Assembly (NCBI GenBank): GCA_947454235.1
Contig: CANGIY010000014.1
Span: 47,330 to 111,329, forward strand
Length of the DNA stretch: 64,000 nt
Direction: 5' to 3'
Source: Chitinophagaceae bacterium
Lineage (GTDB): Bacteria; Bacteroidota; Bacteroidia; Chitinophagales; Chitinophagaceae
Shown: in pieces, positions 58,261-63,316 of the stretch
Layout of the letters: the number at the start of each line of letters is the position of its first letter
Position numbering within the stretch: position 1 is the stretch's first letter
The notes under the pieces: model-generated
What the model saw: only the letters and a program-made list of their open reading frames with translations
Told to the model about the DNA's origin: nothing
Databases searched by the model: none
Position numbers and translations under genes: made by a program

Positions 58261-59286
58261 TTGGACGAAATCATCATAAATCTCGATTCAGTTAATCCCA
58301 TAGAGTTTTTTGGGGTTAATAATGCTAAGTTCGATATCCTCAAAAAGAGGTACCCTACTTTGAAAATACTGGGTCGCGGTACTCAGGTTAAGATAGCGGG
58401 GCACCCCAACGAAGTGATGGTAGCCCAAACGAAAATCAACCAAATCATCCAGTTTCTGGAACGAAATGGTCATTTGTCGGAAAACTATTTTTCAAAGATT
58501 ATTGGAGAAGAAGAGGGCGAAAGCGTTAAGGAAGATTTAGCCAACAACGATATTTTAGTTTTTGGTCCAAACGGGAAAGTAATCAGGGCAAAGACTGCCA
58601 ATCAGAAACTGATGGCGGCTGCGTCTGAAAAAAATGATATCTTATTTGCTATTGGCCCTGCCGGTACGGGTAAAACATACACGGCAGTGGCTTTGGCAGT
58701 TCGTGCATTGAAGAACAAAACAGTGCGCAAAATCATTCTCACACGTCCGGCAGTTGAGGCGGGCGAGAATCTCGGTTTTTTGCCCGGCGATTTAAAAGAG
58801 AAAATCGATCCGTACCTGCGTCCATTGTATGATGCATTGGATGACATGATACCTACCGACAAGCTCAACTATTACATGACCAACCGCATCATAGAAATTG
58901 CGCCTTTGGCATACATGCGTGGTCGTACCCTCGACAATGCCTTTATCATTCTCGATGAAGCACAAAACACCACCGACTTACAACTTAAAATGTTCCTTAC
59001 CCGTATTGGCCCATCAGCGAAAGCGGTGATTACAGGCGATTTAAGCCAGGTCGATTTACCAAAGAACCAACGTTCAGGTTTGATACGTTCCTCAAAAATT
59101 CTACAGAACATTGAAGGGATCGCATTCATTCACCTCGACGAAGCCGACGTTGTGCGCCATAGACTGGTTAAACACATCATTCGCGCATACGACAAAGCCC
59201 AGGCGCAAGAAGACGAACAAAAGGCCCGCGACAAAAAAGAACAACAAGAGCGCTACAACAACCGCGACCAAGGTCAGCAATCGTAG
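58261..59286 (+). CDS. phoH: PhoH family ATPase (TTG start)
   Basis: FAIGPAGTGKTYTAVALAVRALK, ILTRPAVEAGENLGFLPGDLKEKIDPYLRPLYDAL, FIILDEAQNTTDLQLKMFLTRIG. Confidence 0.95.
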   Translation: MDEIIINLDSVNPIEFFGVNNAKFDILKKRYPTLKILGRGTQVKIAGHPNEVMVAQTKINQIIQFLERNGHLSENYFSKIIGEEEGESVKEDLANNDILVFGPNGKVIRAKTANQKLMAAASEKNDILFAIGPAGTGKTYTAVALAVRALKNKTVRKIILTRPAVEAGENLGFLPGDLKEKIDPYLRPLYDALDDMIPTDKLNYYMTNRIIEIAPLAYMRGRTLDNAFIILDEAQNTTDLQLKMFLTRIGPSAKAVITGDLSQVDLPKNQRSGLIRSSKILQNIEGIAFIHLDEADVVRHRLVKHIIRAYDKAQAQEDEQKARDKKEQQERYNNRDQGQQS

Positions 59287-59347: not shown

Positions 59348-59897
59348 TTAATGTGACCTAAAATCATCGGGAAAAGTTAGAAAACGAATTCGTCTATGAG
59401 GAGTTAAAGAAATTGTTCAGCTAAAAGAACTTGTGCTGTCGTTTAAACAATAATCAAAAGAAATTTCAGCGTTTACCATATCAATATGAGGAAAGTGTTC
59501 AATATCTCTAGTGAGGACTAAGTTGTATTTGCCATCAATTTTTTCGGATTTTATTACACTATTTGGTTTTATCCATCATCCCAATGAAAAATACTTTTGA
59601 AGCCAAATTCCCCAAAGAAATTGCCCTTCTTTCACATCTTTATCGTCTGAACTGATTTTTAGACTAGCATTCTTAACAACGAATGAGTCGGTTCCATTCA
59701 AAACTAAGTAAATGGAAAATCTATCTAAAGGACCTCCTTTTTCGGCATAAACTTCACACAGAATTCCTTTTTCTAAGCCTAAGCAAACATAGTCCTTATT
59801 TTGAGACTTGCATTGTGACTTTAGATTAGTGGTGTATACAGTACTGCTCCTACACCCCATTTAAAAGCAAAAAGATAAAACAGATATAGTATTTCAT
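59348..59897 (-). pseudogene. Decayed paralog of the adjacent lipoprotein gene (one frameshift plus two in-frame TGA)
   Basis: Reading along copy 2: MKYYICFIFLLL then a +1 frameshift (GGG to GGGG), TGA at 59576-59578, TGA at 59417-59419, then ...TISLTPHRRIRFLTFPDDFRSH stop. Confidence 0.85.
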
Positions 59898-59921
59898 ACT
59901 TGCAGGTTTTGCATTTTTGAA

Positions 59922-60467
59922 TTAATGCCCCCTAAAATCATTTGGATATGAAAGTAAACGAATTCTTCTATGAGGGGTTAGGAGGATTTTTTTGCTAAAA
60001 GAACTTGTGCTGTTGCGAAGACAATAATCAAAAGAAATTTCAACGTCCAATGTAGGCATATCTTTGAAATTATCGATACTTCTATTTAATACTAAATCAA
60101 AGTTGCCATGTAGTTTTAGGGATTGTACAATATTAGAATCAACCCTTCCACCGAGAGAAAAATCATTATTTAACCATATCCCCCAAAGAAATTTTCCTTT
60201 AGTTATGTTTTGGCCTTCATGAAATAAGTTCATTTTTACATTTTTGACATAGAATGTATCATCGCCATTCAACATTAGGTAAACATCGAAGCTATTGAAG
60301 GGTTTTCTGTTTAAAACAAAAAGATTACAATGGAGCCCATTACCCAATTCAAAGCAAGCGTAATCCTTATTATCTGTTTTGCATTCCGATTTTAAATCCG
60401 AAGTGTATACAGTACTGCTCCTACACCCAACTAAAAGCAAAAAGATAAAACAGATATAGAATTTCAT
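59922..60467 (-). CDS. Hypothetical lipoprotein (intact paralog)
   Basis: Lipobox FIFLLLVGCRSST; 181 codons from MKFYICF. ORF open upstream to 60518. Confidence 0.72.
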   Translation of the reverse strand: MKFYICFIFLLLVGCRSSTVYTSDLKSECKTDNKDYACFELGNGLHCNLFVLNRKPFNSFDVYLMLNGDDTFYVKNVKMNLFHEGQNITKGKFLWGIWLNNDFSLGGRVDSNIVQSLKLHGNFDLVLNRSIDNFKDMPTLDVEISFDYCLRNSTSSFSKKILLTPHRRIRLLSYPNDFRGH

Positions 60468-60652
60468 AGTTGCAGGTTTTACTTTAAAGTTTTGATTTAA
60501 TGTCTTACGAAAACTCAACTCTGGTTCCTAAAAAAAACATAGCAAGACAATCTATCTTTATACAAGAAGGAATTATTCCCCCTAAAATAGATAAAAATAG
60601 CTGAAATCGATTGTGGAGTATTTAGAAATCCACTTGCAGGTTTCAATCCTTT

Positions 60653-60785
60653 CCTCGCGCGCTGCGACCTGCCCTCACCAGTTTCATCGGATTGCATCCG
60701 AAATAATACCACAATCTGGTTGAAGGATTTCCTTCTTCTCTTTTATTCAGCAATCGTGTAGGGGCGGAAGATCTTCCGCCCTTAC
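60653..60785. repeat. Palindrome-rich intergenic repeat, copy 1
   Basis: cctcgcgcgctgcgacctgcc...atcggattgcatccgaaataatac.acaatctggttgaaggatttccttc...attcagcaatcgtgtaggggcggaagatcttccgcccttac; near-duplicate at 60831-60962. Confidence 0.88.
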
Positions 60786-60830
60786 AGTCGGCGCCCCTTC
60801 AATCTCACACTGGCATGTCCGGTGCATAGC

Positions 60831-60962
60831 CCTCGCGCGCTGCGACCTGCCAACACCAGTTTCATCGGATTGCATCCGAAATAATACTACAATCTGGTTG
60901 AAGGATTTCCTTCGACCTAATATTCAGCAATCGTGTAGGGGCGGAAAATCTTCCGCCCTTAC
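60831..60962. repeat. Palindrome-rich intergenic repeat, copy 2
   Basis: Near-identical to copy 1; ends gtaggggcggaaaatcttccgcccttac. Confidence 0.88.
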
Positions 60963-61044
60963 GGTAGTATGTGTTGCCGAAAAATCAGAAAAATCAACAT
61001 CAAACAACCCTTCAATACGATTCAATTGCCGTAATTTACCGTCG

Positions 61045-61944
61045 ATGTCTATAAAATCGTTGATTGGTATTTTTGCCCTTAGCTGCACATGTTCGTTAGG
61101 GTATTCGCGAAGTATGAATGAATTACGACAACGAATAAAATCGATTACCGACACCACTAAAGGGATTATTGGAATCTCGGTGCATGAGTTAGAAACAGGC
61201 GATACACTAACGTTCAATGCGCAACATCATTACCCAATGTTGAGTACCTATAAACTGCCACTCGCACTCGCAATTTTGCATAAAGTCAATCAGGGAGTAT
61301 TAAAACTCGATCAGAAAATTCACGTTTCAGCAAAAGATGTGAAACAAGATACCTGGAGTCCAATCATTGAGCAATACCCTCAGGGTAATATCGATTTGTC
61401 GTTGAAAGAAGTGCTCGAATATACGATTGCTCAAAGCGATAACTTAGGGTGCGATTTGCTATTCAGACTAATTGGCGGAACGCATATCGTGAATGAGTAC
61501 ATACATAGTGTAGGCATTGATAGCATGGAAATTGTTGCTACAGAGGAGGAAATGCACAAAAAATGGAATGCACAATATAAAAATTGGTGCCTACCAAATG
61601 CAATGGATAAAATATTAGAAGACATTTTTCATCAAAAATTGTTAGACAAAACATTGAATGCACTACTTATTCAAATTCTTGAGTCAACGAGTTTTCGGCC
61701 CGAACGAATAAGAGGATTGCTGCCCAAAGAAACAGTAGTTGCACATAAAACTGGCACTTCCGGAACAAGGTTAAATGTCAGGGCTGCGTGCAATGATTTG
61801 GGCATTATTACGTTGCCCAACGGTCATCATGTTGCCCTGGTCATTTTTATTACTCAATCAAAATCTCCACTGCCCATCGAAGAACATCAAATTGCATTGA
61901 TTTCCAGGGCTGTTTACGACTTTTTTGCAGCCGTCAATCATTAG
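61045..61944 (+). CDS. Class A beta-lactamase, subclass A2-like (PER/VEB/CfxA-related)
   Basis: S70-x-x-K (STYKLPLALAIL), SDN loop (IAQSDNLGCDLLFRLIGG), omega loop (TEEEMHKKWNAQYKNW), KTG motif (HKTGTSGT). Signal peptide-like start at MSIKSLIG; the ORF call from 60898 runs back into repeat copy 2. Confidence 0.92.
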   Translation: MSIKSLIGIFALSCTCSLGYSRSMNELRQRIKSITDTTKGIIGISVHELETGDTLTFNAQHHYPMLSTYKLPLALAILHKVNQGVLKLDQKIHVSAKDVKQDTWSPIIEQYPQGNIDLSLKEVLEYTIAQSDNLGCDLLFRLIGGTHIVNEYIHSVGIDSMEIVATEEEMHKKWNAQYKNWCLPNAMDKILEDIFHQKLLDKTLNALLIQILESTSFRPERIRGLLPKETVVAHKTGTSGTRLNVRAACNDLGIITLPNGHHVALVIFITQSKSPLPIEEHQIALISRAVYDFFAAVNH

Positions 61945-61977: not shown

Positions 61978-62085
61978 AGTAGGGACCGAAAATCTTCCGC
62001 CTTTCGGTATGTACATCTGGTCCAAGATTTCCTTCGACCCAACATTCAGGAAGTATGTGCTTCCGAAATGAAAAATTCTGAAAAA
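61978..62085. repeat. Diverged/rearranged copy 3 of the palindromic repeat
   Basis: gtagggaccgaaaatcttccgcctttcggtatgtacatctggtccaagatttccttcgacccaacattcaggaagtatgtgcttccgaaa, with blocks matching copy 2 in a different order. Confidence 0.7.
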
Positions 62086-62125: not shown

Positions 62126-63316
62126 CTATTTCGCAATTGTAAACGCAAACTCTGTTCGACCAGGTTCAGATTTTACATTAACATTGCCACCTAGTTTTTC
62201 CACCAATTTTTTAACTGTGGCGAGTCCCACACCAGTACCGCTGTCTTTATTGATTTTGTTGGTTTTGAACAAATCGAAAATGTTCTCAAGCGCTTCGTTG
62301 GGTATGCCCGGACCATTGTCAATTAAAGAAAAATAGTATTTCCCACCTTTGCATTCACAATTAATATTGATGATTCCATCAGGCCTGTCCAAATATTTAA
62401 TTGCATTCGCCATCAGGTTCAGTATTATTTGCTTCAACGCAATTTTAACCGAAAATATCTCCTTACAATTTAAAAACTTTTCAATCTTGATTTTCTCAGA
62501 GGGTTTAAGCAGAAAGGTAATATCATTGAGCAAAGAGTCTAAGTCAAACAGTTCTTTTTGAATGCCAATTATCTGCGTATTCTTTGAATAATAGAGGATG
62601 GCATCAATGAGGTGACTAAGGTTTTCAGAAGACTGTTTGATGTATTCAAGGTATTCTCGGGTTGTTTCAGGGTCACTGTCATCACCCATATTCAAAATAA
62701 TATCAGTAAGCCCATTGATTGTATGTAAAGGACTTTTCAGGTCGTGTGCTGCCCGGTATGAAAACTGTTCTATTTCCTCATTTTGTTGTTCTAGCTCAGT
62801 CATTATGTTATTGAGCATCTCATTCTTCACCCTCAACTCAAGTATTTTTGAAATCTGATTGCTTATAGCTTGTAAAGCATTCTTTTGAGTAGGTGTTAGA
62901 TCTTTCGGCTTATTGTCTAAAACGCAGATTGTGCCGAGCGCATACCCCTCTTGCGACACGAGTGGCATACCTGCATAAAATTGTATATAAGGAGCACCCA
63001 CCACCAATGGATTGTCAAAAAAGCGAACATCTTTTGATGCGTCATTAACTAAAAAAAGCTCGTTGGGTTGATTAATGGCATAAGCGCAAAATGAATATTC
63101 CCTGGCTGTTTCTGTATCAATCATGCCAACTCTGGATTTAAACCACTGTCTTTTTTCATCCACCAAAGAAATCAACGAAATGGGAGTTTGACATATCTCC
63201 GATGCAAGTACCGTCAAGTCAGCGAACTCCTTCTCGTCGATGGTATCAAGGATATTATAATGCAATAAATTAGCCAGCCTTTCTTTCTCGTTTGCTGGAA
63301 TCGGTGGAGCTTGCAT
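62126..63316 (-). CDS. GAF-domain sensor histidine kinase
   Basis: GAF-like N-terminus (RQWFKSRVGM.DTETAREYSFCAYAI); HisKA FSYRAAHDLKSPLHTINGL; HATPase NLMANAIKYL, DNGPGIPNEALENIFDLF, GTGVGLATVKKLVEKLGG. Confidence 0.94.
   Translation of the reverse strand: MQAPPIPANEKERLANLLHYNILDTIDEKEFADLTVLASEICQTPISLISLVDEKRQWFKSRVGMIDTETAREYSFCAYAINQPNELFLVNDASKDVRFFDNPLVVGAPYIQFYAGMPLVSQEGYALGTICVLDNKPKDLTPTQKNALQAISNQISKILELRVKNEMLNNIMTELEQQNEEIEQFSYRAAHDLKSPLHTINGLTDIILNMGDDSDPETTREYLEYIKQSSENLSHLIDAILYYSKNTQIIGIQKELFDLDSLLNDITFLLKPSEKIKIEKFLNCKEIFSVKIALKQIILNLMANAIKYLDRPDGIININCECKGGKYYFSLIDNGPGIPNEALENIFDLFKTNKINKDSGTGVGLATVKKLVEKLGGNVNVKSEPGRTEFAFTIAK

What the first reader, a model, noticed from the sequence alone, without database searches (positions are those of the whole stretch)
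61045..61944. Chromosomal class A beta-lactamase of the A2 (PER/VEB/CfxA-like) branch, apparently intact
Seen: all catalytic motifs are present in order (STYK, SDN, an omega loop TEEEMHKKWNAQYKNW that resembles VEB/PER from memory, HKTGTSGT). Established: the A2 subclass includes extended-spectrum enzymes typical of Bacteroidota. Inference: an environmental relative of clinically mobile ESBLs, in an accessory pocket beside a pseudogene and repeats.
Basis: partly seen in the sequence, partly recalled or inferred. Interest (0 to 1): 0.72.

Follow-up and report, generated by a model that had tools for sequence, protein, structure and literature searches.

The report
Ordinary environmental A2-type beta-lactamase gene
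This is an intact gene for a penicillin- and cephalosporin-breaking enzyme of a kind widespread in Bacteroidota; it is a distant cousin, not a close relative, of hospital resistance enzymes such as PER and VEB, so it is a new but ordinary member of a known family.

Summary
Window 61045-61944 (+) encodes a complete 299-aa class A serine beta-lactamase with all catalytic residues (S70, K73, S130, D131, N132, E166, K234-T-G) and a putative signal peptide. It passes NCBI's subclass A2 model just over the cut-off (324.8 vs 320 bits). A predicted structure (mean pLDDT 95) matches CPA-1 of Chitinophaga pinensis (6v4w, TM 0.97 by target length, 47% identity), then TLA-1/TLA-3 and PER. 'PER/VEB/CfxA branch' is too specific: identity is 39% to TLA-3, 38% to VEB-1, 35% to PER-1 and 28% to CfxA2, and the tree leaves it on a long branch, unresolved among Bacteroidota chromosomal enzymes. 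No relative above 49% was found in 299 family genomes; 35 of those carry a strong match. Its position (between phoH and a GAF histidine kinase, beside a decayed lipoprotein copy and dispersed palindromic repeats) is specific to this genome; two congeners carry their A2 gene elsewhere, between dxs and gcvP. No transposase, integrase or regulator was recognised next to it. Hydrolysis, spectrum and inhibitor profile are untested; the main sequence oddity is Leu instead of the usual Gln at position 69.

The parts
61045..61944 (+). class A beta-lactamase gene, subclass A2 (299 aa)
   Evidence: NF012099 SubclassA2 324.8 bits (cut-off 320), NF033103 bla_class_A 261.8 bits (cut-off 200); PF13354; AlphaFold model mean pLDDT 95, nearest 6v4w
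61045..61110 (+). putative N-terminal signal peptide (about MSIKSLIGIFALSCTCSLGYS), for export
   Evidence: by eye: basic n-region, hydrophobic core, small residues before about residue 22; homologues begin their mature domain at residue ~25. Not tested with a signal-peptide predictor
61240..61254 (+). codons for L69-S70-T71-Y72-K73 (nucleophile and general base; Leu69 replaces the usual Gln69)
   Evidence: alignment to TEM-1 numbering and 51 comparison rows
61435..61443 (+). codons for S130-D131-N132 motif
61537..61593 (+). omega loop with E166 (ATEEEMHKKWNAQYKNWCL); Gln177 and Asn180 (protein numbering) of the A2 loop present
61747..61764 (+). codons for K234-T-G-T-S-G motif (preceded by His)
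60653..60788 (+). dispersed repeat unit, copy 1, ending in palindrome GGGCGGAAGATCTTCCGCCC (60762-60781)
60831..60965 (+). dispersed repeat unit, copy 2, about 93% identical, palindrome at 60939-60958
61979..62052 (+). diverged repeat copy downstream of bla (palindrome with 3 mismatches at 61983-62002; related 27-nt piece at 62026-62052)
59922..60518 (-). lipoprotein-like gene (lipobox LLVGC by eye), no Pfam match, no homologue found in the other 10 genus genomes
59348..59920 (-). decayed tandem copy (49% protein identity, several stops) of the lipoprotein-like gene
58261..59286 (+). PhoH-family ATPase: left flank, conserved in the genus with the PurE-like gene upstream
62126..63316 (-). GAF-domain histidine kinase: right flank, not next to phoH or bla in congeners

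Best explanation
It is an exported, chromosomally encoded serine beta-lactamase of class A, subclass A2, of the unmobilised kind scattered through Bacteroidota. Lys73/Glu166 activate Ser70, which attacks the beta-lactam ring; Ser130 and the K234-T-G strand hold the substrate; Glu166 then activates a water that frees the inactivated drug. The A2-type omega loop (Asn179, Asp136, Gln177) and Thr237/Ser238 with Arg220 resemble those of PER and TLA, so cephalosporins are likely substrates. Shown by sequence and model: residues, fold, subclass, intact frame. Inferred: export, hydrolysis, spectrum, physiological role. The gene is accessory: it sits at a site not used by congeners, was probably acquired or moved locally, and nothing shows that it is mobile now.
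For: SubclassA2 and class A equivalog models over cut-off. Every catalytic residue present; S70, S130, D131, E166, G236 invariant in the comparison set. AlphaFold model pLDDT 95, pTM 0.90; best solved matches 6v4w (TM by target length 0.97, rmsd 0.9-1.3 A), TLA-1, TLA-3, PER-1, PER-2. 6v4w is CPA-1 of Chitinophaga pinensis, classed as a class A 'Q-like' enzyme (PMC12073871). Patchy spread: 35 of 299 family genomes have a strong match. Different genomic site in congeners G004 and G007, and none of their bla or hydrolase genes beside dxs or gcvP in this genome.
Against: The A2 score is only just over the cut-off. The protein departs from the A2 majority at 14 otherwise 80%-conserved positions, among them Q69L, F74L, T216F, G217R and G245N, and sits on a long branch. 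In LRA-5, a related soil protein, neither of two changes at positions 69 and 166 gave activity alone; both were needed (PMC12777564), so position 69 may matter. No expression or activity data.
Confidence: 0.9

Rival explanations
1. The protein keeps the fold and catalytic residues but has become weak or substrate-shifted (for example cell-wall peptide binding), because substitutions around Ser70 and the 214-218 region disturb the active site.
For: Leu69 where 43 of 51 comparison rows have Gln; F74L, T216F, G217R, G245N and a long branch. LRA-5 shows that an A2-like fold can be nearly inactive in soil bacteria (PMC12777564).
Against: Glu166 is present (absent in LRA-5). Leu, Met, Ile or His at position 69 occurs in eight other A2 rows, including the established CfxA2 enzyme (Met). 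Model confidence is very high.
Confidence: 0.08
2. A recently mobilised ESBL of the PER/VEB/TLA group captured by this bacterium.
For: Same subclass; accessory position with flanking repeats.
Against: No DNA match in 72,556 plasmids; 35-39% identity to TLA-3, VEB-1 and PER-1; PER-1 and TLA-3 pairings rejected; GC 39% against 41% for the window; no mobile-element gene recognised beside it.
Confidence: 0.02
3. A PBP-like or DD-peptidase serine hydrolase rather than a beta-lactamase.
For: Weak secondary Pfam matches to Transpeptidase and Peptidase_S11, below their cut-offs.
Against: Glu166 in an omega loop, SubclassA2 and class A equivalog models over cut-off, all top structures are class A beta-lactamases.
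Confidence: 0.01

Closest known systems
CPA-1, Chitinophaga pinensis (PDB 6v4w)
   Same: Class A 'Q-like' catalytic core, Bacteroidota enzyme, 47% identity, TM 0.97 by target length (PMC12073871)
   Different: Leu instead of Gln before Ser70, so the Gln-Gln contact described for CPA-1 cannot form; KTGTS instead of KTGSS
TLA-1 / TLA-3 extended-spectrum beta-lactamases
   Same: Same fold (TM 0.96-0.97 by target length), near-identical omega loop (ATEEEMHKxWNxQYxNW)
   Different: 39% (global, TLA-3) to 42% identity; TLA-3 lies on an IncC plasmid; pairing with TLA-3 rejected, p 0.036
VEB and PER extended-spectrum beta-lactamases
   Same: Subclass A2; catalytic motifs, HKTGTSG, Asp136, Asn179
   Different: 38% and 35% identity; far below the blaVEB and blaPER cut-offs (239 of 670 and 219 of 650 bits)
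CfxA / CepA / CblA (Bacteroides enzymes)
   Same: Subclass A2 relatives; their models also match
   Different: 28% to CfxA2 over 269 columns; lower model scores than TLA, CGA/CIA, VEB and PER
LRA-5 (Alaskan soil metagenome, PDB 8eo5)
   Same: Environmental A2-like fold, 33-34% identity
   Different: LRA-5 lacks Glu166 and is nearly inactive; this protein has Glu166

Membership tests
Class A serine beta-lactamase | S70-x-x-K73, S130-D-N132, E166, K234-T/S-G in register | tested here: met
   Alignment on TEM-1 numbering; models over cut-off
Class A serine beta-lactamase | overall fold of class A enzymes | tested here: met
   AlphaFold pLDDT 95; Foldseek top 50 hits are class A-type beta-lactamases
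Class A serine beta-lactamase | hydrolyses beta-lactams | not testable with these tools
   needs expression and kinetics
Subclass A2 | NCBIfam NF012099 score over 320 bits | tested here: met
   324.8 bits, a narrow pass
Subclass A2 | positions shared by the A2 rows: Asp136, Asn179, omega-loop Gln177, Trp105 | tested here: met
Subclass A2 | Gln at position 69 (majority feature, 43 of 51 rows) | tested here: not met
   Leu69; accepted members such as CfxA2 also vary here, so this is a majority trait, not a defining one, and is not taken as exclusion
PER / VEB / TLA / CfxA allele families | family model over its curated cut-off | tested here: not met
   TLA 261/640, VEB 239/670, PER 219/650, CfxA 117/625 bits
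PER / TLA sublineages | pairs with the named enzyme in the tree | tested here: not met
   PER p 0.011, TLA p 0.036
VEB and CepA-like sublineages | pairs with the named enzyme in the tree | tested here: inconclusive
   not found in the free trees, but not rejected: VEB p 0.061, CepA-like p 0.19
Extended-spectrum beta-lactamase | hydrolyses oxyimino-cephalosporins | not testable with these tools
   needs MIC and kinetics
Mobile resistance gene | on a plasmid, integron or transposon, or close copies in other genera | tested here: not met
   no plasmid DNA match; none over 49% protein identity in the family; no element gene recognised nearby

The most novel reading that the evidence does not exclude
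A divergent A2 lineage whose replaced Gln69-Gln177 contact (Leu69 with Gln177 kept) and altered 214-218 region give an unusual substrate or inhibitor profile, showing that the A2 active site tolerates another solution.
Probability: 0.12. Interest if true: 0.35.

Novelty: new member of a known kind. Interest (0 to 1): 0.15.

Why it matters
It adds one divergent sequence to the large unmobilised Bacteroidota pool from which PER, VEB and TLA-like enzymes are thought to have come, and gives a natural case of Leu69 together with Glu166 for the open question of what residue 69 does in A2 enzymes. It is not evidence of a resistance threat.

Tried and rejected
Tested pairing with PER-1, TLA-3, VEB-1 and a CepA-like enzyme by AU test: two rejected, one borderline, one open. 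Tested whether it is the vertical form of its congeners' A2 genes: that clade is allowed and even slightly better in likelihood (AU p 0.67 and 0.51), so vertical descent with relocation can be neither shown nor excluded. Looked for the congeners' bla or hydrolase genes beside dxs and gcvP in this genome: none. Searched for a plasmid copy: none. Matches in viral contigs and phage records are distant and were not followed. A Bacteroidota-type promoter was looked for by eye only, without a clear result. Literature searches for A2-defining residues gave few usable papers.

Full report
What was checked. Window 61045-61944 (+) is one uninterrupted frame of 299 aa. The S-x-x-K, S-D-N, E166 and K-T-G motifs line up with TEM-1 numbering. 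Pfam Beta-lactamase2 matches at E 8e-45. NCBIfam's class A and subclass A2 equivalog models both pass their cut-offs, the A2 model narrowly (324.8 against 320 bits). The upstream frame extension to 60898 runs largely through a dispersed repeat and is not part of the protein by comparison with homologues.

What it is. A predicted structure from an alignment of 30 relatives is very confident (mean pLDDT 95, pTM 0.90). Its best solved match is 6v4w (47% identity, TM 0.97 by target length), followed by TLA-1/TLA-3, PER-1/PER-2, the Bacteroides enzyme 5tfq and LRA-5. A 2025 survey names 6v4w as CPA-1 of Chitinophaga pinensis, one of a small 'Q-like' group of class A structures in which an omega-loop Gln touches the Gln before the nucleophile (PMC12073871). 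The window protein keeps that omega-loop Gln (residue 177) but has Leu before Ser70. In the comparison set 43 of 51 rows have Gln there; the rest have Leu, Met, Ile or His, among them CfxA2 with Met.

Placement. On a tree of 55 rows and on one of 42 rows without the longest branches, the protein sits on a long branch inside subclass A2, unresolved among chromosomal Bacteroidota enzymes, and joined to none of the PER, VEB, TLA or CfxA rows. AU tests reject pairing with PER-1 (p 0.011) and TLA-3 (0.036), leave VEB-1 borderline (0.061) and leave a CepA-like enzyme open (0.19). Grouping with the three A2 proteins of its own genus is allowed (p 0.67 and 0.51). No relative over 49% identity turned up in 299 genomes of its family, of which 35 carry a strong match, or in plasmids (best 43% in Nostoc). 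The pattern search of genome contigs found 32-40%; that search reaches close relatives only, so it is not exhaustive.

Surroundings. The left flank (PurE-like gene, then phoH) is conserved through the genus; what follows phoH is not. The right flank, a GAF histidine kinase and a TonB-like protein at the end of the contig, has its closest congener matches away from phoH. In congeners G004 and G007 the A2 gene lies elsewhere, directly after an alpha/beta-hydrolase-like gene between dxs and gcvP (those gene names are read from the sequence, not from a model search). In the window's genome dxs and gcvP lie on different contigs and neither has a bla beside it. The gene is therefore accessory, and its site is specific to this genome among those compared. 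Next to it are a lipoprotein-like gene found in no other genus genome, a decayed tandem copy of it, and three copies, two good and one diverged, of a palindromic repeat that occurs at 18 places genome-wide with at most two mismatches. Direct repeats on both sides could allow loss or movement by recombination, but this is inference. GC content (39%) is close to that of the window (41%). No transposase, integrase or BlaI/BlaR-type regulator was recognised among the neighbouring frames; this was by reading plus Pfam on five proteins, not an exhaustive search.

How it most likely works. By analogy with class A enzymes (established knowledge), Ser70 is acylated by the beta-lactam and Glu166-activated water releases the product. 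Asp136, Asn179, Thr237 with Arg220, and Ser238 match the PER/TLA pattern, so cephalosporin hydrolysis is likely. In PenL, Asn136Asp raises ceftazidime efficiency (PMC7737660), but that is a different subclass and only suggestive. Activity, spectrum and inhibitor profile were not tested. LRA-5 warns that an A2-like fold can be nearly inactive, although that protein lacks Glu166 (PMC12777564).

Verdict. A real, intact, new but ordinary member of subclass A2.

Noticed in passing
60762-60781, 60939-60958, 61983-62002: Palindromic repeat GGGCGGAARATYTTCCGCCC, 18 places genome-wide with up to 2 mismatches, clustered on contigs C11 and C18; two good copies and one diverged copy surround bla.
   Followed up: partly
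59348-60518: Lipoprotein-like gene with a decayed tandem copy; no Pfam match and no homologue in the other 10 genomes of the genus.
   Followed up: partly
L002 1207-2208 (G000 contig C12): A second Beta-lactamase2-domain protein (333 aa) in the same genome; by reading, the S-x-x-K motif is not evident where expected, so it may be non-catalytic.
   Followed up: no
L117 8676-10390 and L118 9092-11572: In two congeners the A2 gene directly follows (overlapping by 1-4 bases) an alpha/beta-hydrolase-like gene between dxs and gcvP, a possible conserved operon.
   Followed up: no
L077: The CfxA2 copy on Bacteroides fragilis plasmid CP103278.1 is listed as two pieces, suggesting a frameshift or early stop in that record.
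   Followed up: no
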